NCBI GenBank assembly: GCA_017858255.1
Contig: JAFMBV010000014.1
Coordinates: forward strand, 1-55,445
Source: Bacteriovoracaceae bacterium
GTDB taxonomy: Bacteria; Bdellovibrionota; Bacteriovoracia; Bacteriovoracales; Bacteriovoracaceae
Reading direction: 5' to 3'
DNA: 55,445 nt
In this document: positions 8,387 to 32,801 of the stretch, piece by piece
Position numbering within the stretch: position 1 is the first letter of the stretch
Layout of the letters: every line of letters starts with the position of its first letter
Program-made: the position numbers and the translations under genes
Notes under the pieces: generated by a model
Databases searched by the model: none
Seen by the model: only the letters and a program-made list of their open reading frames with translations
What the model was told of the DNA's origin: nothing

Positions 8387-9016
8387 TTACTTGTAAATCT
8401 CACCTTTATATACCCACACTTTTACACCAATAATCCCATATGTTGTTAGGGCTTCGGCAGTATTGTAATCAATATCTGCTCTAAGGGTGTGTAGTGGAAC
8501 TTTTCTTTCTGAGTAACCTTCAGCTCTTGCCATCTCAGCACCGCCAAGGCGACCAGCCGTTCTAACACGAATTCCTTTAACGCCAGCTCTAAAGGCTGAC
8601 TGAATAACCTTTTTCATGGCTCTTCTGAAAGCAACACGTTTTTCTAACTGAGATGCAATATTCTCTGCGATAAGTTTTGCATCTGCATCAGGTCTCTTAA
8701 CCTCAGCTATATTAAAAATAAGAGTTCCTGAAGTTAATTTCTTTAGGTCGATTCTTATCTTTTCAATACCTGCGCCTTTCTTACCAATAGCAACACCAGG
8801 CTTGGCCGTGAAAACAGTCACTTTTACTTGGTCGGAAGTACGGGCTATATCTACACTAGCAACTGAAGCGTTCTTCATTTGCTTTTCGATATACTTTCTG
8901 ATGGCCAAATCTTCTTGAAGGGTTTTTGCGTATGATGTTTTATCAGCATACCAATTTGAGTTCCAACCCTTAATATAACCTAATCTAAATCCGTATGGAT
9001 GTACTTTTTGTCCCAT
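8387..9016 (-). CDS. rpsC: 30S ribosomal protein S3
   Basis: S3 forms part of the mRNA entry tunnel with S4 and S5. The 209-residue product begins MGQKVHPYGFRLGYIKGWNSNWYA. It has a KH domain with TAKPGVAIGKKGAGIEKIR (GxxG type) and the C-terminal RAGVKGIRVRTAGRLGGAEMAR. It follows rplV by 8 bp, so coupling is likely. Confidence 0.98.
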   Translation of the reverse strand: MGQKVHPYGFRLGYIKGWNSNWYADKTSYAKTLQEDLAIRKYIEKQMKNASVASVDIARTSDQVKVTVFTAKPGVAIGKKGAGIEKIRIDLKKLTSGTLIFNIAEVKRPDADAKLIAENIASQLEKRVAFRRAMKKVIQSAFRAGVKGIRVRTAGRLGGAEMARAEGYSERKVPLHTLRADIDYNTAEALTTYGIIGVKVWVYKGEIYK

Positions 9017-9024
9017 AACTTTTC

Positions 9025-9360
9025 CTACGCTTCCTTCATTTCAACTGTAACGTGACTTGTTCTTTTACGTACTCTAAATGCACGACCCTGAGCTCTCGGC
9101 TGGATCCTTTTTAGAGTAGGTCCTTCGTCAGCGAAAATAGTACTGATAACGAGATTATCAATATCGTATTTTTCAGAATCTGCAGCAATTGCAAGTCCAC
9201 TATTGATAAGCTTAGTAAGCATGATTGCGATTTCTTTTTTTTCAGAAAATCTCAATACTTTTAACGCCTCTGAAGCCCTCTTATTTCTAATTAGGTCACA
9301 AACTTGTCTTACCTTGCGTGGTGCAATACCGACTCTACTGTTTTTTACTAAAATGGCCAT
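9025..9360 (-). CDS. rplV: 50S ribosomal protein L22
   Basis: L22 has a globular part on the 50S surface and a beta-hairpin lining the exit tunnel. The 111-residue product has SRVGIAPRKVRQVCDLIRNKRASEAL and the hairpin/C-terminal text EGPTLKRIQPRAQGRAFRVRKRTSHVTV. The tunnel loop associated with macrolide resistance looks intact, without insertions. It is 30 bp after rpsS. Confidence 0.98.
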   Translation of the reverse strand: MAILVKNSRVGIAPRKVRQVCDLIRNKRASEALKVLRFSEKKEIAIMLTKLINSGLAIAADSEKYDIDNLVISTIFADEGPTLKRIQPRAQGRAFRVRKRTSHVTVEMKEA

Positions 9361-9390
9361 AATGACCCTCTCCTATTAATTCGACTTAAA

Positions 9391-9669
9391 TTACTTTTTC
9401 TTTTTATCTGCACCGTGACCATTAAAGGTACGTGTCAATGCAAACTCACCTAACTTGTGTCCAATCATATTGTCTGTAACATAAACTGGAATAAACTTTT
9501 TCCCGTTATGAACAGCAAATGTTAATCCAATAAACTCAGGTACAATCGTTGAGCGACGTGACCAAGTTTTAATAACTTTATTTGATTTATTACTATCATC
9601 ACTAGCAGCAATTACTTTATTCATGAGCGATGTATCAACAAATGGACCTTTTTTTAATGAACGGGCCAT
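9391..9669 (-). CDS. rpsS: 30S ribosomal protein S19
   Basis: S19 pairs with S13 in the 30S head. The product is 92 residues, with [19 protein letters not shown] at the start, then [32 protein letters not shown] and [13 protein letters not shown], all diagnostic. It is placed 15 bp after rplB and 30 bp before rplV. Confidence 0.98.
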
Positions 9670-9684
9670 ACTAATTCTCCCTAA

Positions 9685-10509
9685 TTACTTTCTACGCTTA
9701 ACGATGAAGCGGTTAGTTCTCTTGTTATTTCTAGTCTTATAACCTTTAGTTGGCATACCCCAAGGAGACACTGGATGGCGTCCACCAGAAGTTCTCCCCT
9801 CACCACCACCATGCGGATGATCAACAGGGTTCATAGCCACACCTCGTACACTTGGCCTAAAGCCTAATTTACGAGTAGCACCAGCTTTACCTAAGTTTCT
9901 TTTTTCGTGATCTATATTTCCAACCTGGCCAATCGTGGCTCGACAGTTGTCTTTTACACGTCTTAACTCGCCAGAGGGCATTCTAAGAAGAACTTCATTT
10001 CCTTCCTTTGCCATTAACTGGATATAAGCACCTGCTGAACGAGCCATCTGGCCGCCGGCACCTGGATTGATTTCCACATTGTGAATCAGGGTACCAACAG
10101 GAATGTCCTTAAGTAGCTTTGAGTTGCCTACTTTAATATCGGCTTCTGCAGAACTAATTACCTTGTCACCAACCTTCAAGCCTTGTGGAGCCAAGATGTA
10201 AGTCTTAAGCCCATCAGCATATACAATTAAGGCGATATTACAGGTTCTATTTGGGTCATAAGAAATAGCTTCAACAGATGCAGGAATATTTTCCTTATTT
10301 CTCTTAAAGTCGATAATTCTATAACGTCTCTTAACACCACCACCTCTATGTCTAGTGGTAATTCTACCCGCGTTATTACGTCCAGCTTTTGATTTAAGAG
10401 GAGCTATTGCAGATTTGAGGACTTTTGCTTTTTTAGTAAGGTCCGCACTATTTACAACTGCTTTTTCTCTTTGAGATGGAGTGGTTGGTTTAAATTTTTG
10501 AATAGCCAT
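9685..10509 (-). CDS. rplB: 50S ribosomal protein L2
   Basis: L2 is needed for subunit association and the peptidyl-transferase centre. The 274-residue product includes [20 protein letters not shown], the central SH3-like part with [14 protein letters not shown], and the C-terminal [24 protein letters not shown], which carries the conserved His near the active centre. It is 27 bp after rplW. Confidence 0.99.
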
Positions 10510-10536
10510 TTTACTAATTCCTTATCTCAAGCCTAA

Positions 10537-10827
10537 TTAAACGCCCTTAAAAAACTCAATTTTTTGACCTTCAGCTAATTGAACATAAGCTTTCTTGGTC
10601 TTAGATGTTTTTTTAACAGTCTTGCCAGCTCTTTTAATTTTGCCAGGCATGATGCTTGTCTTAATATTAAGAACTTTTACATCGTAAAGAGTTTCAATTG
10701 CGGCTCTTATTTGATTTTTGTTTGCTTTTAAATCAACAACAAAACCATACCTATTAGTTTTTTCACCAATAATAGATGTTTTTTCAGTAATAAGTGGTTT
10801 CTTCAATACTTCTTCTAACTGGGCCAT
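10537..10827 (-). CDS. rplW: 50S ribosomal protein L23
   Basis: L23 is the trigger factor and SRP docking protein at the tunnel exit. The 96-residue product has KKPLITEKTSIIGEKTNRYGFVVDLKANKNQI and LYDVKVLNIKTSIMPGKIKRAG, the L23 core and loop. It starts 2 bp after the rplD stop, so translation is probably coupled. Confidence 0.97.
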   Translation of the reverse strand: MAQLEEVLKKPLITEKTSIIGEKTNRYGFVVDLKANKNQIRAAIETLYDVKVLNIKTSIMPGKIKRAGKTVKKTSKTKKAYVQLAEGQKIEFFKGV

Positions 10828-10829
10828 AG

Positions 10830-11447
10830 TTACACCAATCGATTAAGCAAAGTTTCCAATGCTTGTTTTTCAATTATTAAATTTTCATATTTCACTGCTG
10901 CATAAACACTAAAATGTTCAACAGGTAATGAGGTTGCTCTTTCAATATTCTTAGCGGCTCTTAAAGCAGGATCACTTTTTTCCTGAGTGACCACTAAGGC
11001 AGGCAAAAGACCCTTGTCGTTCAAGGTCTTAAACATTTCCTTAGTTTTGCCATTTGACTCAAACTTATCAACGACAATTAATTTTCCAGCCTGTAGCTTG
11101 TCTGCGATTATTGACTGGATGGCTACTTTAGTTACCTTTTTATTAACTTTTTGATCATAGTCTCTTGGCAATGGGCCAAATACACGTGCACCACCAACCA
11201 TTAAACCTGAACGAATTGTACCCTGACGAGCACGACCAGTACCTTTTTGCTTAAAAGGCTTAGCTCCACCACCGCTTACAAAAGCTCTTGTCTTAGTGGA
11301 ATGCGTCCCTTGTCTTCTACCGGCCAGAGTCGCTTTCACAACTTGATGAACAGCAGGTCCCTTAATATTTTCAGCAGCTAATGCTACAGCTGTAGACATT
11401 TTCCCTGAATCTTCAAATTTTGAGTTAAGAACTGTTATATCAGTCAT
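10830..11447 (-). CDS. rplD: 50S ribosomal protein L4
   Basis: L4 reaches into the exit tunnel, and in E. coli it also attenuates the S10 operon. The product is 205 residues, with RRQGTHSTKTRAFVSGGGAKPFKQKGTGRARQGTIRSG (the tunnel loop) and the C-terminal Rossmann-like part. It lies between rplC (24 bp) and rplW (2 bp). The leader before rpsJ is very short here, so an E. coli-type L4 leader seems absent. Confidence 0.98.
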   Translation of the reverse strand: MTDITVLNSKFEDSGKMSTAVALAAENIKGPAVHQVVKATLAGRRQGTHSTKTRAFVSGGGAKPFKQKGTGRARQGTIRSGLMVGGARVFGPLPRDYDQKVNKKVTKVAIQSIIADKLQAGKLIVVDKFESNGKTKEMFKTLNDKGLLPALVVTQEKSDPALRAAKNIERATSLPVEHFSVYAAVKYENLIIEKQALETLLNRLV

Positions 11448-11471
11448 TTCATTATCCTCTTAACTAAACTG

Positions 11472-12176
11472 TTACTTCTTTACTGCTTTAGAAATCTTTA
11501 CCCAGCTATTTTTACTGCCAGGAACCGAACCTCTAATTAACATATATCCCTTGTCTGCATTTACTTCTACTACTTGAAGATTTTGCGTTGTTTTTATTTC
11601 ACAACCCATGTGACCAGGCATTTTCTTATTTTTCCAAACACGTCCAGGAGTGGCTCTGTTACCGATAGAACCTGTAGTTCTATGGAATTTTGATCCGTGA
11701 GTTTTTGGTCCACCAGCAAAGTTATAACGCTTAATTACACCCTGAAAACCTTTACCCTTTGATTTTCCTGTTACATCAATCATTGTTGTTGCTGGAAACA
11801 TATTTAATGAAACTTCTTTTCCAAGAGCATCATCACTTACGCCCTCAACACGAATCTCAGAAAACTTTGTTAAGCCAGCCTTAATATTAGCTTTCGCTAA
11901 ACGACCCTTAGTTGGCTTGTTAACAAGCTTCTCTCTTTTTGCCTGATAACCAACCTGATAGGCTTCGTATCCGTCATTTTCTTTTGTTTTGATTTGTGTG
12001 ATGAAGTTTGGCTCAAGCTTGATTACTGTAACGGGAACGTGATTACCCTCTTCGTCAAAAATACGAGTCATCCCAGCTTTGATACCATAAAAAGAAGATA
12101 ATTCTACAGCAGCAGCTGTACTTTCATTGGAATTTTTTGCTTCAGTCTCTTCGACTGACTTTGTTTCTTCGGTCAT
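11472..12176 (-). CDS. rplC: 50S ribosomal protein L3 with acidic N-terminal extension
   Basis: L3 is an assembly initiator whose loop reaches the peptidyl-transferase centre. At 234 residues it is longer than usual. The first ~28 residues are rich in Glu, Ser, Thr and Ala, and the canonical L3 start (GIKAGMTRIFDEEGNHVPVTVI) follows. Further signatures are DVTGKSKGKGFQGVIKR and the GPKTHGSKFHRTTGSIG loop. GGAGG stands just before the ATG, so the extension appears to be translated. It is 82 bp downstream of rpsJ, an unusually long gap that contains a hairpin. Confidence 0.98.
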   Translation of the reverse strand: MTEETKSVEETEAKNSNESTAAAVELSSFYGIKAGMTRIFDEEGNHVPVTVIKLEPNFITQIKTKENDGYEAYQVGYQAKREKLVNKPTKGRLAKANIKAGLTKFSEIRVEGVSDDALGKEVSLNMFPATTMIDVTGKSKGKGFQGVIKRYNFAGGPKTHGSKFHRTTGSIGNRATPGRVWKNKKMPGHMGCEIKTTQNLQVVEVNADKGYMLIRGSVPGSKNSWVKISKAVKK

Positions 12177-12188
12177 TCGGCCTCCACA

Positions 12189-12212
12189 GCATCACCCTGA
12201 CTTCAGGGATGC
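12189..12212 (-). other. Hairpin between rpsJ and rplC
   Basis: A near-perfect inverted repeat: CCCTGA/TCAGGG around a 2-nt loop, extended by GCAT/ATGC with a 2-nt bulge. It lies 13-36 bp before the rplC start and just upstream of its GGAGG. No T-run follows, so it is not a terminator. It could set the level of rplC translation or act in operon autoregulation; that is inference. Confidence 0.4.
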
Positions 12213-12258
12213 GTGCATGGGTTAATAATTTATAGCGGGTCTAAACCCAAATCACTCT

Positions 12259-12567
12259 CTAGTACTTAATTTCAACATCAACACCTGAGGACAGGTCAAG
12301 CTTCATTAGGCTGTCAACGGTTTGCTGTGTTGGATCGACGATATCGATCAATCTTTTGTGGGTCCTCATCTCGAATTGTTCACGAGACTTTTTGTTAACG
12401 TGAGGTCCACGAAGAACTGTAAACTTATTTATTTCTGTTGGTAAAGGGATAGGACCAGCAACTCTTGCACCAGTCTCTTTCGCAGTCTGAACAATCTCAT
12501 TCACAGAATTATCTAGTAACTTGTGATCATAGGCTCTTAATTTTATTCGCAATCTAGACGCTTTCAT
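12259..12567 (-). CDS. rpsJ: 30S ribosomal protein S10 (NusE)
   Basis: S10 is a 30S head protein and also the NusE partner of NusB and NusG in antitermination. I start at the ATG at 12567 (102 residues, [16 protein letters not shown]); an in-frame TTG two codons earlier would only add two residues. Conserved text includes [12 protein letters not shown] and [21 protein letters not shown]. It heads the S10 gene set, 25-30 bp below the predicted promoter at 12600-12628. Confidence 0.98.
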
Positions 12568-28461: not shown

Positions 28462-28848
28462 CTAGTAAATTGTATTTAGAACCCATCTAAATCCATTATC
28501 CACAGCTATAAAAATCAAGCTTAATATGGATAATCCAATCAATATTCCGATAGTGCTTTTCACAACGGATTCTGAATCAGGCCAAATAACCTTAACCAAT
28601 TCGCTATAAACTTCATCTAAGTGGTCTCTAGCAGTTTCATTCTTCTTAACAATTAAGAAAACTGAAAGACCTAGCAAAATGCCAATGCCCTGAGAGACTC
28701 CTATGAAGTAGGAAATCCTAGCCTCTAGATCGAACCACTCACCCATTTGACCAAGAAACTTGATCACTAAATATCCACACAACATTGAAATCAACGCTAC
28801 AAAAAAGTTGATCCATTTCTTGTTATCTTCTGCTTTTATAATCGACAT
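28462..28848 (-). CDS. secE: preprotein translocase subunit SecE
   Basis: SecE clamps SecY in the inner membrane. The 128-residue product has two N-terminal hydrophobic segments (near residues 13-32 and 45-66) plus the conserved amphipathic helix and final membrane segment. The key text is DEVYSELVKVIWPDSESVVKSTIGILIGLSILSLIFIAVD. It is thus the three-helix version, as in E. coli, and not the single-helix form. It heads the secE-nusG run; upstream lies a radical-SAM gene instead of the usual tRNA-Trp/tuf. Confidence 0.95.
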   Translation of the reverse strand: MSIIKAEDNKKWINFFVALISMLCGYLVIKFLGQMGEWFDLEARISYFIGVSQGIGILLGLSVFLIVKKNETARDHLDEVYSELVKVIWPDSESVVKSTIGILIGLSILSLIFIAVDNGFRWVLNTIY

Positions 28849-29001: not shown

Positions 29002-30087
29002 CTAAATTTTGTTGAAATAGGATTGCTTTAGATGTTTTTTATCATCGACTTCTCCGTCTGATGTTCTGACTTTTTTAAGGGAACATTTTTCAACGCAACG
29101 CCATTTCAATGGCTTATCATTTCTCCATGCATCAATAAGGTCATTATTTAGGAAAGAATGAGACAAAATCTGATCAACTTCAAAGTCATTTATACTATTG
29201 AAGTTAGTTTCATATTTTTCAAATAACGTTGCTTCTAAAGCCTCTCTCTTTATTAAGTTTTCATAGCGAATATTTGACCAGAAGCAGCATGGCCAAATTC
29301 TTGAGTCCCAAGAAATGAAGAACATCTTCCTCGTGTCTTTATAAACGCAGCTTGTTTTATTTGTTAGTGAATTAAAAATACCATCTAAATAATCTTGATC
29401 ACCTGTTGAAGGTTTCGATTGAAGAGTGGATTTATTGTATCGAAGAGATTTAATTTTCTCCTCTCCCCACTTTGAGGCATTTGTCCTGTCTGGCCGAGCA
29501 AAGAAACCAACACAACCTAAGGTTTTTGCTATTTGCTCCATTTCTTCAATTTGATTTTCATTCCAAGGAAAAACGACCGTCTGCCAAATTGCTCTTCCAC
29601 CCTTATCGATAAAAGCCTTTAAATTAGTAATTACTTTTTCGTAGTTTCCACCAAATCGATAGATTGAATGAGTTTCTCCAATCCCATCAATACTAAACCT
29701 AACAACTGACTCGGGGGATGTCCTAACTAGCACCTGGGCCAGCTCCTGATAGTACTCTGGGTTTTGCAGAGAACCATTTGTATGAATAGATATTTTTATC
29801 TCTGGCTTTTCATTAACAAAAGATTTTAATATTTGAAGAAATTTTGTATGAGCAAAGGGTTCATCAACGGTTCCACAAAACTCAACCTCCAAAACTCTTT
29901 CTTTAAAAAACTGTGATTCAATGACCTTAGTTATTGTCTCCATAGGCATTTCCTGTCCAACTTCCAATAGTGGGTTTGTATGCCTTAGAGTCTTAAAATC
30001 TGTTCTTATGCATGATGGACACAGGTGATTGCATTTACTGGAAAGTTCTATTTGAATCGAACTGGTGTTCTCTAAATAAGAGCTCAT
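29002..30087 (-). CDS. radical SAM protein with C-terminal auxiliary-cluster domain (rSAM-1), function unknown
   Basis: Radical SAM enzymes use a [4Fe-4S] cluster and S-adenosylmethionine to generate a radical. This 361-residue protein has the cluster motif C-X3-C-X2-C (Cys19, Cys23, Cys26; CNHLCPSC), then FCGTVDEPF near 70-78, HTNGS near 102-106 and FSIDGIGETHSIYRFGG near 131-147. The C-terminal cysteines (247, 267, 268, 331, 335) resemble a SPASM/twitch-type domain that would hold a further cluster. It overlaps the upstream rSAM-2 gene by 4 bp, so the two are coupled. It is clearly related to rSAM-3 (31620-32642), with the same motifs and the same final cysteine pattern. The substrate is not evident. 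Confidence 0.85.
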   Translation of the reverse strand: MSSYLENTSSIQIELSSKCNHLCPSCIRTDFKTLRHTNPLLEVGQEMPMETITKVIESQFFKERVLEVEFCGTVDEPFAHTKFLQILKSFVNEKPEIKISIHTNGSLQNPEYYQELAQVLVRTSPESVVRFSIDGIGETHSIYRFGGNYEKVITNLKAFIDKGGRAIWQTVVFPWNENQIEEMEQIAKTLGCVGFFARPDRTNASKWGEEKIKSLRYNKSTLQSKPSTGDQDYLDGIFNSLTNKTSCVYKDTRKMFFISWDSRIWPCCFWSNIRYENLIKREALEATLFEKYETNFNSINDFEVDQILSHSFLNNDLIDAWRNDKPLKWRCVEKCSLKKVRTSDGEVDDKKHLKQSYFNKI

Positions 30088-31220
30088 CTTTTATTTTCAC
30101 CGTAAAAATTATGTTTTAAAAATAAATCAACCACTTTCTTATCTGGTGACTTAGTAATACATAACCCACAGTTACATAGCTTATTAGGACATACTACGGG
30201 TTCTATCGTCTTATTCATTATAGAGGAGTGGAGATCATCTGCTATTTTTTCGATATCTGAAAAGGTACCAATTGGCCCTCTTTCATTTCCGTGTTTAGCT
30301 TGGCATGTTTGATGATAATATATTTTCTCTTCATCCTGATGGATGTGAATAAAAAACAAATTTACTAAACAGTACCAACCCTTAAAGTTTCTTTCCGTAA
30401 CCAACGACTTACTTTCACTAGTATCAATAGATTCGAATTCAAAATCACTTGGGAGCACTTTAAAGGATCTTCCACCACAACAAGGTCGCCCTATATTGGT
30501 TCCCGTCGTTTTTTCTTTGGCTTGGTTTTGATTATCTTTACAAGACTTCGAGCCTTTTTCGGATGTCCAGCTGTTCTTAAAAAAGTTCAACTGATTTTCA
30601 TTATAAACATGCGCACCCTTATCATTAGGATGTTCACCGATATATCGAGCCGTAAAGGTTATTTCATTTTCCTTAAAGTCCTCAGCAAGCTGACAACATT
30701 CCAAAAAGTAATCCTCATAGGCGTGAACCATTAAATTAATATTAAAGCTCTTAAGGTAACTTTCCTTATTCTTCTGGGCCTTATTTAGTCTTTTAATATT
30801 TTCTTTTATTACCGTCTTCTGCTCTTTAGATGCTTCACAGTGATAACTTAAGGTTACATAGTCCATTTTTTCAATTAACTCCTGACACTTGGATTCGGAA
30901 AACAATCCATTTGTTGTTACTCCAAGAGTTAGAAGATCATCTTGTGATCTTAAATAATCCACAATTGATATAAAGTTTGGATTAAGCGTCGGCTCTCCAC
31001 CAGTAAAGCTAACATTTACTTTAACTTTTCCCGGTGCAACCTTATTTAAGCTTTTTGAATAAGTTAGTGGCAGTAGTGCAGCTCTTTTTAACAAGTCAAG
31101 TTGTGCATGAGGGCTAATCAAGTCGTGGCGATGAGGTGGACAGTAGGAACAATCCAAATTGCATCTCTTTCCAAGGTCCCAAGTACAGGTAACTTCAAGT
31201 GAGTCCTGCCAAATGCTCAT
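30084..31220 (-). CDS. radical SAM protein with Cys-rich C-terminus (rSAM-2), function unknown
   Basis: This 378-residue protein has the radical SAM motif C-X3-C-X2-C (Cys20, Cys24, Cys27; CNLDCSYC) and a good GGEPT motif at residues 74-78 for SAM binding. It then has TTNG near 102-105. The C-terminal third carries eight cysteines (247, 248, 284, 306, 344, 349, 351, 354), enough for one or two auxiliary iron-sulfur clusters, with a final C-X4-C-X-C-X2-C. It is a different subfamily from rSAM-1 and rSAM-3. The gene starts at the ATG at 31220 and ends in a 4-bp overlap with rSAM-1. I do not recognise a named family and assign no substrate. Confidence 0.85.
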   Translation of the reverse strand: MSIWQDSLEVTCTWDLGKRCNLDCSYCPPHRHDLISPHAQLDLLKRAALLPLTYSKSLNKVAPGKVKVNVSFTGGEPTLNPNFISIVDYLRSQDDLLTLGVTTNGLFSESKCQELIEKMDYVTLSYHCEASKEQKTVIKENIKRLNKAQKNKESYLKSFNINLMVHAYEDYFLECCQLAEDFKENEITFTARYIGEHPNDKGAHVYNENQLNFFKNSWTSEKGSKSCKDNQNQAKEKTTGTNIGRPCCGGRSFKVLPSDFEFESIDTSESKSLVTERNFKGWYCLVNLFFIHIHQDEEKIYYHQTCQAKHGNERGPIGTFSDIEKIADDLHSSIMNKTIEPVVCPNKLCNCGLCITKSPDKKVVDLFLKHNFYGENKR

Positions 31221-31619
31221 ATTATCGCCTATCCAGTTTTATCGCTTTTTTAATAAAGTTATCTATTTTTCTATACTTTAATTCTTTAAATTAAGAATTC
31301 TTCTTAACTCAAGAAATATCTCTTTAAATGAAAGACCTCTAATCTTATCAAGTGTTTTAGTAAAATGCCAAAACACACCTTTTGCTCTTCCCCTCTTAGG
31401 ATACTATCATACATAGGAGAAGTTAAAAGTAAGCGTTAACATTGGAATAGGCATTAGGCTGGAAGAGAGTTAAATTTAGTATCACAACTTAATATCAGAC
31501 AAATTCTCCACTAAACTGATCACTGAGCTACTTTATAATAATTTTTATACGCAACTCTCTTCACTTAATAAGGTGATTAAAGAAGCTGTGCTAATACTTG
31601 CTTAAAGGACCTTTTTAAA
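31221..31619. other. Divergent intergenic region between rSAM-2 and rSAM-3 (399 bp)
   Basis: The region is AT-rich. It holds a perfect TATAAT on the plus strand near 31533-31538, which may be the -10 of rSAM-3 with a poor -35. Short AT-rich dyads lie near 31281-31310, where AATTCTT and AAGAATT are separated by six bases and AAGAATTCTT follows. A possible 32-codon minus-strand reading frame is listed separately (31278-31376). I see no integrase, tRNA or terminator. Confidence 0.5.
31278..31376 (-). CDS. Candidate small ORF (32 residues) upstream of rSAM-2
   Basis: From a GTG at 31376 the minus strand encodes MFWHFTKTLDKIRGLSFKEI followed by FLELRRILNLKN. This is a basic amphipathic sequence that looks more protein-like than chance translation. 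It ends 57 bp before rSAM-2 and runs in the same direction. The frame is closed upstream by a stop nine codons before the GTG. The only Shine-Dalgarno-like text (AGGGGA) is about 12 bp away and weak. It may be a small co-transcribed peptide, the remnant 3' end of a lost gene, or chance. Confidence 0.25.
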   Translation of the reverse strand: MFWHFTKTLDKIRGLSFKEIFLELRRILNLKN

Positions 31620-32642
31620 ATGCTATACAACGCATATCTTAAAAGCCTTCACATTGAACTAAGTAGTCATTGCAATGCAAGCTGCTTGGGTTGCTCAAGA
31701 ACTAGCGAATTTTCAGAGAAGGCTCATTTACCTATCTCTCCTAAAAACCTAGAACTAGAAAATATTAAAAATATATTTAAAGATGAATCAGTTAAAAAAG
31801 TTGATTGGGTTTATCTCTGTGGAAACTTGGGTGATCCACTTGCCTCTCCCCTCTTTAAGGAAGCATTATTTATAATATTTGAGCATCTTCCAAAAACAAG
31901 GGTCTCGGTGCACACCAATGGTTCAATTGGCTCACAATCCTTATGGCGCTCCCTTGGAAGTGAATTTAAAGATTATAATTTAAAAATTGTTTTCTCAATC
32001 GATGGTCTAGCGGATACCAACCATCAATATCGAGTCGGTGTTCCTTGGAACGCAATCATGGCGAATGCAAAAGCCTATATTGATAATGGTGGCCATGCTA
32101 TTTGGAAGTTCATAAAGTTTCCTCACTCTTCTCATCAAATTACAGAGGCTCAAAGGATATCCCAAGAGATGGGTTTTAAAGAGTTCCAGATTAGAGAACC
32201 ATATGATCAGGACCGTGTTCCCGGTAAAAGTAGTCTCGAGAGTATTAAAGAGTTTAAAAGTGAATATCGTCCCTACAAAGATGCGACAACAAGCGAGCTT
32301 CTTCGTCATTTTTCTAAAAAAGGAAAAGAGACAATCAAATGCCAAGCAAAAGAAGCGCAACAGATTTACATCGATTCATTTGGTAAAGCTTATCCCTGTT
32401 GTTGGCTTGGAAATTTAGGTCTCGATAGACGCTCTATAAGAGAGAGTGAACTTTTTTTCCGACATGTTACTAAAAAGTATGCTCCAAACTTCAACTCTCT
32501 TTATCACTTCTCTTTAAGTGAAATCTTAAAGCACCCTTGGTTTAGTAAATCACTTGTTGATTCTTTAGATAATGATATTGAGGATCCTACTAACCCTTGT
32601 ATTCCTACATGTTTAAAACACTGTAAAAATCAATCAAGATAA
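31620..32642 (+). CDS. radical SAM protein with C-terminal auxiliary-cluster domain (rSAM-3), function unknown
   Basis: This 340-residue protein has the radical SAM motif at Cys18, Cys22, Cys25 (CNASCLGC), then LCGNLGDPLA near 66-75, VHTNGS near 97-102, and FSIDGLADTNHQYRVG near 125-140. The last third has Cys241, a Pro-Cys-Cys at 259-261 and Cys327, 331, 335, the same layout as rSAM-1. Shared text with rSAM-1 includes IELSS, the CxRT after the cluster motif, NxKAxID and YxxNFNS, so the two are paralogues pointing in opposite directions. It ends 33 bp before the 3' end of tRNA-Trp, converging with it. AAAGGA lies 10 bp before the ATG. The substrate is unknown. Confidence 0.85.
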   Translation: MLYNAYLKSLHIELSSHCNASCLGCSRTSEFSEKAHLPISPKNLELENIKNIFKDESVKKVDWVYLCGNLGDPLASPLFKEALFIIFEHLPKTRVSVHTNGSIGSQSLWRSLGSEFKDYNLKIVFSIDGLADTNHQYRVGVPWNAIMANAKAYIDNGGHAIWKFIKFPHSSHQITEAQRISQEMGFKEFQIREPYDQDRVPGKSSLESIKEFKSEYRPYKDATTSELLRHFSKKGKETIKCQAKEAQQIYIDSFGKAYPCCWLGNLGLDRRSIRESELFFRHVTKKYAPNFNSLYHFSLSEILKHPWFSKSLVDSLDNDIEDPTNPCIPTCLKHCKNQSR

Positions 32643-32675: not shown

Positions 32676-32751
32676 TGGCGGGTGCAGTAGGATTCGAACC
32701 TACAACCTACTGATTTGGAATCAGCCGCTCTACCGTTGGAGCTATACACCC
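32676..32751 (-). tRNA. trnW: tRNA-Trp (CCA)
   Basis: The minus strand folds into a 76-nt cloverleaf. The acceptor is GGGTGTA/TGCACCC, the anticodon stem GCTGA/TCAGT with loop TTCCAAA (anticodon CCA), the T arm GTAGG TTCGAAT CCTAC, and the 3' CCA is encoded. It lies between the tuf terminator and the radical-SAM cluster. In many bacteria this tRNA sits directly before secE. Confidence 0.96.
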
Positions 32752-32776: not shown

Positions 32777-32801
32777 AAAGGGCCGGAAGAACCGGCCCTT
32801 T
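32777..32801 (-). terminator. Strong rho-independent terminator after tuf copy 2
   Basis: AAAGGGCCGG and CCGGCCCTTT form a 10-bp stem with a 5-nt loop, followed on the minus strand by TTCATTTT and on the plus side by a T-rich tract. It lies 18 bp after the tuf stop and separates tuf from tRNA-Trp. It may act in both directions, also protecting against read-through from rSAM-3. Confidence 0.85.

What the first reader, a model, noticed from the sequence alone, without database searches (positions are those of the whole stretch)
29002..32642. Three radical-SAM genes inserted between secE and tRNA-Trp/tuf
Seen: rSAM-2 and rSAM-1 are coupled by a 4-bp overlap, and rSAM-3 is divergent. They separate secE-nusG from tRNA-Trp and tuf, which are neighbours in many bacteria. 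Known: radical-SAM enzymes with extra C-terminal cysteines often modify peptides, proteins or small molecules. Inferred: an uncharacterised modification system of which all three genes are part. No transporter, regulator or clear substrate gene is attached. Possible targets include a small peptide (see 31278-31376) or a component of the translation machinery.
Basis: partly seen in the sequence, partly recalled or inferred. Interest (0 to 1): 0.72.

Follow-up and report, generated by a model that had tools for sequence, protein, structure and literature searches.

The report
Phage-type radical-SAM cassette beside tRNA-Trp
Three intact radical-SAM enzyme genes in a bacterium of the Bdellovibrio phylum, plus the stump of a fourth, are a shrunken copy of a multi-enzyme cassette of unknown product that is common in large marine T4-like viruses, and they sit at a chromosomal spot where related bacteria also carry extra genes.

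Summary
In detail: rSAM-1 (30084-31220) and rSAM-2 (29002-30087) overlap by 4 bp on the minus strand, and rSAM-3 (31620-32642) is divergent. They widen the trnW-secE gap to 3.8 kb; 19 of 22 relatives have 92-360 bp there. The "small peptide" 31278-31376 is not a substrate gene. It matches the last ~29 residues of the twitch radical-SAM family NF033640 ("N_Twi"), which often lies just before rSAM-1-type genes elsewhere, so it is the stump of a fourth enzyme. rSAM-1 orthologues are rare in this phylum (5 of 340 genomes) but relatives were confirmed at 374 stretches of IMG/VR viral contigs; the large contigs carry T4-type capsid or terminase genes. In 77 viral loci, N_Twi accompanies rSAM-1 in 77 and an rSAM-2/3-type gene in 76. 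One viral contig has the exact order N_Twi, rSAM-1, rSAM-2. A second genus carries a 47-kb island with rSAM-1, rSAM-2 and N_Twi genes at the same trnW-secE site. Best reading: a pared-down member of a virus-associated multi-rSAM cassette at an insertion-prone site. The product is unknown; a surface glycan or similar small molecule is my first guess, a peptide the main rival. No link to translation was found beyond location.

The parts
30084..31220 (-). rSAM-1: radical SAM enzyme (378 aa), core CNLDCSYC, C-terminal auxiliary-cluster region (GRPCC..., GWYC, HQTC, CPNKLCNCGLC); member of a mainly viral orthologous group
   Evidence: AlphaFold2 model pLDDT 85.5, SPASM/twitch-type fold
29002..30087 (-). 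rSAM-2: radical SAM enzyme (361 aa) with C-terminal auxiliary-cluster cysteines C247, C267, C268, C331, C335; 4-bp overlap with rSAM-1
   Evidence: nearest relatives lie next to or within a few kb of rSAM-1 orthologues in G207, G116 and viral L296; model pLDDT 84.2
31620..32642 (+). rSAM-3: divergent paralogue of rSAM-2 (340 aa), same cysteine pattern
   Evidence: nearest relative is the paralogue at G000:C10 (281 bits, 40% identity), which is also divergent from an N_Twi gene
31278..31376 (-). Relic: C-terminal stump of a lost N_Twi (NF033640-type) radical SAM gene directly upstream of rSAM-1; the open frame runs 31281-31403
   Evidence: hmmsearch E = 7e-4 over all six-frame segments of the window, model positions 373-401 of 403
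32676..32751 (-). tRNA-Trp (trnW), one border of the variable site
28462..28848 (-). secE, other border of the variable site
   Evidence: orthologues in 85 of 129 genomes of the family
32778..32800 (-). terminator-like hairpin after tuf, before trnW
   Evidence: consensus scan only

Best explanation
The trio is a pared-down chromosomal copy of a multi-enzyme radical-SAM cassette. Its full form (N_Twi twitch-rSAM + rSAM-1 + one or more rSAM-2/3-type enzymes, often with a PP-loop ATPase and a short-chain dehydrogenase) is widespread in large marine T4-like phages and occurs sporadically in Bdellovibrionota. In the window the N_Twi gene has been lost down to its last ~30 codons, while rSAM-1, rSAM-2 and rSAM-3 keep all conserved cysteines. 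The cassette sits in the trnW-secE interval, a site that takes foreign genes in several relatives. Shown: homology, co-occurrence, gene order, relic, site. Inferred: horizontal spread between phages and bacteria (direction not resolved), and that the enzymes act on one shared substrate, each using its core [4Fe-4S] cluster to make a 5'-deoxyadenosyl radical and its auxiliary cluster(s) for substrate binding or electron transfer. My first guess for the product, at about 35-40%, is a sugar or similar small molecule used to alter a cell or virion surface.
For: rSAM-1 relatives confirmed at 374 stretches of viral contigs but orthologues (E <= 1e-100) in only 5 of 340 genomes of the phylum and in none of the six other genomes of its genus searched. 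rSAM-1 is 33-41% identical to viral copies over its length with the cysteines invariant. In 77 viral loci N_Twi is present in 77, rSAM-2/3-type in 76, PP-loop ATPase in 56, SDR in 34; the gene just before rSAM-1 is N_Twi in 40 of 80 copies and PP-loop in 25. Viral L296 has N_Twi 8602-10011, rSAM-1 10001-11197, rSAM-2-type 11160-12266 (218.6 bits to rSAM-2 against 161.6 to rSAM-3), the window's order. Viral contigs are genuine: Gp23 capsid in 11 of 25 and terminase in 7 of 25, and all six of 240 kb or more have at least one. Relic. Same site in G116: trnW 148045-148120, 47-kb island with rSAM-1, rSAM-2 and N_Twi homologues, secE 195438. Surface or sugar hint: glycosyltransferase-2, UDP-glucose dehydrogenase, SDR and PP-loop genes in the full clusters, and rSAM cassettes reported in the host-recognition island of pelagimyophages (PMC7029224).
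Against: No direct evidence on substrate. Structural matches to sugar enzymes (BlsE, DesII) and peptide enzymes (SkfB, SuiB, CteB) tie in Z-score. The window copy has no glycosyltransferase, SDR or PP-loop gene of its own. No integrase and no direct or inverted repeat of 10 nt or more at the borders, so no integration event is visible. rSAM-3's nearest relatives are cellular paralogues, so it may have a separate history. Cellular rSAM-1 copies form at least two lineages among viral ones, but the deep branching is unresolved. Without N_Twi the cassette may be non-functional or may borrow an N_Twi from elsewhere in the genome.
Confidence: 0.62

Rival explanations
1. Peptide-modifying (RiPP-like) system: the SPASM/twitch enzymes modify a short peptide encoded elsewhere.
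For: SPASM/twitch rSAM enzymes are known peptide maturases (general knowledge), and the models match SuiB (Z 19.2 for rSAM-2), SkfB and CteB.
Against: The only candidate peptide nearby is an N_Twi relic. No PqqD/RRE domain was found in the three proteins by Pfam. The one small conserved protein in the viral clusters (about 74 aa, 39 of 77 loci) has no convincing homologue in the window or the bacterial loci fetched (best E 0.16).
Confidence: 0.25
2. Modification of the translation machinery (tRNA-Trp, EF-Tu, ribosomal proteins), as the neighbours suggest.
For: Position between tuf/trnW and secE/nusG/rplK; radical-SAM enzymes that modify tRNA and ribosomal proteins exist (general knowledge).
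Against: The same gap holds an SGNH-hydrolase-like gene in G004 and G005 and an outer-membrane-like ORF in G017, and is short in 19 of 22 relatives. The paralogues and viral homologues are not next to translation genes in the loci examined. Neither SAM methylthiotransferase nor tRNA-modifying models were among the best family matches.
Confidence: 0.04
3. Three unrelated enzymes that landed in a variable site by chance, each with its own function.
For: rSAM-3 has its closest relatives elsewhere in the genome (C10) and in related genomes without rSAM-1 next to it; this genome has 45 Radical_SAM matches.
Against: rSAM-1 and rSAM-2 are linked in the window, in G207, in G116 and in viral L296, and rSAM-3-like genes accompany N_Twi genes too.
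Confidence: 0.1
4. Anti-phage defence of the prokaryotic-viperin (pVip) kind.
For: pVip profiles match the radical-SAM core of rSAM-1 (48.9 bits, residues 13-148) and NCBIfam viperin matches weakly (41.1 bits).
Against: Well below the NCBIfam cut-off of 180 bits; MoaA (58.9 bits) scores higher. The conserved auxiliary-cluster cysteines of rSAM-1 lie outside the region matched. The genes are carried by phages themselves.
Confidence: 0.03

Closest known systems
Radical-SAM cassettes in the host-recognition island of pelagimyophages and other marine T4-like viruses (PMC7029224; PMC5332604 reports one T4-like genome with 12 rSAM genes)
   Same: Several rSAM genes in a row, in T4-like marine viruses, near glycan-type genes; homologues of rSAM-1 and rSAM-2/3 are abundant in IMG/VR contigs of this kind
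   Different: Here the cassette is on a bacterial chromosome, reduced to three genes plus a relic, without glycosyltransferase, SDR or PP-loop partners. That the papers' cassettes are the same family was not tested sequence by sequence.
NF033640 twitch domain-containing radical SAM protein (N_Twi)
   Same: Radical-SAM core of rSAM-2/-3 matches it (49.9 and 46.9 bits), and the relic matches its last 26-29 positions
   Different: rSAM-1/-2/-3 are far below its cut-off of 170 bits and do not match its N-terminal twitch part; only the relic derives from it
SPASM/twitch radical-SAM enzymes of known structure (BlsE, SuiB, SkfB, CteB, DesII, BtrN, MoaA)
   Same: Overall fold of both models: rSAM-1 best BlsE Z 17.9; rSAM-2 best SuiB Z 19.2, BlsE 18.4
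   Different: 12-19% identity; sugar-acting and peptide-acting enzymes tie, so the substrate class is not resolved
Large rSAM island between trnW and secE in genome G116 (another genus of the family)
   Same: Same site; orthologues of rSAM-1 (41% identity) and rSAM-2 (42%), N_Twi present
   Different: About 47 kb with many further genes (GT2, UDP-glucose dehydrogenase, TauD-type dioxygenase, desaturase-like); the window has only 3.8 kb

Membership tests
Radical SAM superfamily (PF04055) | CxxxCxxC core and profile match above curated cut-off | tested here: met
   All three over 29.5 bits; CNHLCPSC, CNLDCSYC, CNASCLGC
SPASM/twitch auxiliary-cluster enzymes | Curated SPASM profile PF13186 above cut-off | tested here: not met
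   rSAM-2 14.6 and rSAM-3 15.9 bits against 21.5; none for rSAM-1
SPASM/twitch auxiliary-cluster enzymes | Conserved C-terminal cysteines and SPASM/twitch-like fold | tested here: met
   rSAM-2/3: C247, C267, C331, C335 invariant and C268 nearly so in 41 sequences; rSAM-1: C247, C248, C284, C306, C344, C349, C351, C354 invariant in 42; models align to SPASM/twitch enzymes. Cluster number and type cannot be shown here.
Virus-type multi-rSAM cassette (N_Twi + rSAM-1 + rSAM-2/3; my grouping) | rSAM-1 orthologue with a linked rSAM-2/3-type gene | tested here: met
Virus-type multi-rSAM cassette (N_Twi + rSAM-1 + rSAM-2/3; my grouping) | Intact N_Twi gene | tested here: not met
   Only a ~30-codon C-terminal relic at this site; other N_Twi genes exist elsewhere in the genome
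NF033640 (N_Twi) for rSAM-1/-2/-3 themselves | Score above 170 bits | tested here: not met
   49.9, 41.5 and 46.9 bits
RiPP biosynthetic cluster | Precursor peptide gene nearby | tested here: not met
   The only candidate ORF is the N_Twi relic; a precursor encoded at a distance is not excluded
RiPP biosynthetic cluster | RRE/PqqD-type leader-binding domain | tested here: inconclusive
   None found by Pfam in the three proteins; cryptic RREs can be missed
Prokaryotic viperin (pVip) | NCBIfam NF038283 score above 180 | tested here: not met
   41.1 bits for rSAM-1; PADLOC pVip matches the core only
Integrative element at a tRNA gene | Duplicated tRNA 3' end or flanking repeats; integrase | tested here: not met
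   No shared or inverted 10-mer between the two borders; no further gene-sized ORF in the interval

The most novel reading that the evidence does not exclude
An undescribed biosynthetic system of several cooperating radical-SAM enzymes (N_Twi, rSAM-1, rSAM-2/3, with PP-loop ATPase and SDR) that makes a new surface or signalling molecule is shared by large marine T4-like phages and bacteria of the predatory Bdellovibrionota, moving between them and entering a common chromosomal site; the window shows it in a reduced state.
Probability: 0.3. Interest if true: 0.8.

Novelty: new variant of a known kind. Interest (0 to 1): 0.55.

Why it matters
Marine T4-like phages carry rows of radical-SAM genes whose purpose is unknown. 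A three-gene bacterial version, with a defined order and a relic that shows which partner was lost, is a small and tractable entry point to that chemistry, and it shows the cassettes are not confined to viruses. It also marks the trnW-secE interval as a variable site in this family, and it removes a misleading lead (the supposed peptide substrate).

Tried and rejected
Small ORF 31278-31376 as substrate: rejected, N_Twi relic. Translation-machinery target: no support. Viperin-type defence: scores far below cut-off. Site-specific integration at trnW: no repeats. Single-protein scan of genome contigs with rSAM-3: no relatives; of viral contigs with rSAM-2: none. An alignment of 15 diverse rSAM-2/3 proteins was too divergent to scan with. 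Phage isolate records (INPHARED): only distant hits. PDB by sequence: weak hits only, e.g. MoaA E 4e-4 for rSAM-1. The ~74-aa viral protein at cluster starts as a possible precursor: no convincing homologue in the bacterial loci. Promoter scan: fewer sites than shuffles, uninformative.
Full report
OBSERVATION. On the minus strand rSAM-1 comes first and rSAM-2 second. Each passes the Radical_SAM cut-off. They lie between secE (28462-28848) and trnW (32676-32751), with tuf beyond. The genome has 45 Radical_SAM matches over 207 contigs, so rSAM genes are plentiful in it; their position and linkage are the points to explain.

THE SITE. Taking secE from relatives and measuring the distance to tRNA-Trp, 19 of 22 have 92-360 bp. 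G004 and G005 (same genus) have one SGNH/GDSL-like gene there and G017 one outer-membrane-like ORF on the other strand. Genome G116 (another genus of the family) has tuf at C34:144863-146053, trnW at 148045-148120 and secE at 195438: a 47-kb insertion full of radical-SAM genes, with homologues of rSAM-1 (L327:9832-11052, 41% identity), rSAM-2 (L327:7747-8805, 42%) and N_Twi (L327:11052-12368). So the trnW-secE interval is a variable site, and it holds this gene family in two genera. Of 129 genomes in the family, 11 have rSAM-2/3-type genes at E <= 1e-25; by place, only G000 and G116 have them next to secE. I found no repeats at the borders and no integrase, so how genes enter is unknown.

THE 'PEPTIDE'. 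The 32-aa ORF 31278-31376 matches the last positions of NF033640 (372-397 of 398; E 0.036). tblastn of fetched proteins puts it at the extreme C-terminus of N_Twi-type rSAM proteins, 59% over 27 residues at best, and a short-query blastp finds the same place in dozens of N_Twi proteins from other genomes and viruses. A profile built from 130 N_Twi proteins picks the frame 31281-31403 out of all six-frame segments of the window with E = 7e-4, at model positions 373-401 of 403. N_Twi is the gene just before rSAM-1 in half of the viral copies, and just before a more distant rSAM-1-like gene in the related genomes G002, G006 and G020. The ORF is therefore the stump of a lost N_Twi gene.

THE FAMILY. 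rSAM-1 has 25% identity to rSAM-1-like genes of related bacteria but 33-41% to viral copies, with all cysteines of core and C-terminal region invariant across 42 sequences. A viral scan confirmed 374 stretches with relatives of the query; orthologues at E <= 1e-100 are in only 5 of 340 genomes of the phylum, with three more holding shorter, weaker matches. In 77 viral loci N_Twi occurs in 77 and rSAM-2/3-type genes in 76 (loci extend up to 10 kb either side), with PP-loop ATPases in 56 and SDRs in 34. Viral contig L296 reproduces the window's order N_Twi, rSAM-1, rSAM-2, and its third gene is closer to rSAM-2 than to rSAM-3. The full-length bacterial rSAM-1 copies besides the window (G207 twice, G085, G116, G147) all have N_Twi and rSAM-2/3-type genes within a few kb. 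In G207 the closest relatives of rSAM-1 (50% identity) and of rSAM-2 (38%) are 1.6 kb apart with an intact N_Twi between them. The contigs are viral: Gp23-type capsid in 11 of 25 and terminase in 7 of 25, at least one in all six of 240 kb or more. A tree puts window rSAM-1 with G207 and the other bacterial copies in a separate clade that also holds a viral row, beside viral lineages: at least two cellular lineages among viral ones, direction unresolved. rSAM-3 differs: its best relatives are cellular paralogues, first C10 of the same genome, which also lies head-to-head with an N_Twi gene.

STRUCTURE AND MECHANISM. AlphaFold2 models (pLDDT 85.5 and 84.2) match SPASM/twitch enzymes: rSAM-1 to BlsE (Z 17.9), SkfB, CteB, DesII; rSAM-2 to SuiB (19.2), BlsE (18.4), MoaA, SkfB. 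Sugar-acting and peptide-acting enzymes tie, so the fold does not decide the substrate. From established radical-SAM chemistry I infer a 5'-deoxyadenosyl radical made at the CxxxCxxC cluster and auxiliary cluster(s) bound by the C-terminal cysteines. The full clusters include glycosyltransferase-2, UDP-glucose dehydrogenase, SDR, PP-loop and TauD-type genes, and pelagimyophage radical-SAM cassettes lie in the host-recognition island (PMC7029224). That leans me to a surface sugar or similar small molecule, but only at about 35-40%; a peptide product stays possible. The window copy may act with an N_Twi from elsewhere in the genome, or may be decaying: I cannot tell which.

KNOWN OR NEW. Rows of rSAM genes in marine T4-like phages have been reported (PMC7029224; PMC5332604). 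In the papers I could search I found no description of this gene set as a system, nor of its bacterial copies at trnW-secE; the library lacks most subscription journals. I rate it a new variant of a known kind.

IDENTITY OF THE ORGANISM. Contig G025:C26 of a genome in the same family has the same length (409,610) as JADGAN010000001.1, named Oligoflexia bacterium, which with the other hits points to Bdellovibrionota; this is an inference.

Noticed in passing
L072 (G000:C101:98000-117900): Another island in the same genome shares gene families with the viral rSAM clusters: a B12-type rSAM-like protein, desaturase-like proteins, a dioxygenase-like protein and an N_Twi gene, with an acyl-carrier-protein-like ORF alongside (groups; the ACP by eye).
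   Followed up: partly
L074:1-12000 (G000:C108): N_Twi-type rSAM genes near a PqqD-like 95-aa ORF, a short peptidase-like ORF and ABC-type transporter ORFs; looks like a separate peptide-type cluster. Read by eye only.
   Followed up: no
L212:5640-6826, L229:6637-7805, L230:8824-9995 (viral loci): rSAM-1 is split into two genes with a 4-nt overlap, separating the radical-SAM core from the C-terminal cysteine domain; bacterial loci L329-L331 have a similar 234-260 aa plus 114-123 aa pair.
   Followed up: no
PHROG 21308 (735 positions): The second half of this phage family (positions about 410-667) matches rSAM-2 and rSAM-3, suggesting a fused viral protein; the first half was not examined.
   Followed up: no
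L335 (G116:C34:137001-157000): Besides the trnW-secE island, this genome has extra genes between tuf and trnW (including an N_Twi-like gene) and between tRNA-Gly and tRNA-Thr, so several gaps of this tRNA/tuf region are variable.
   Followed up: partly
L089, L090 (G004, G005): An SGNH/GDSL-hydrolase-like gene of about 400 aa occupies the trnW-secE gap in two congeners.
   Followed up: partly
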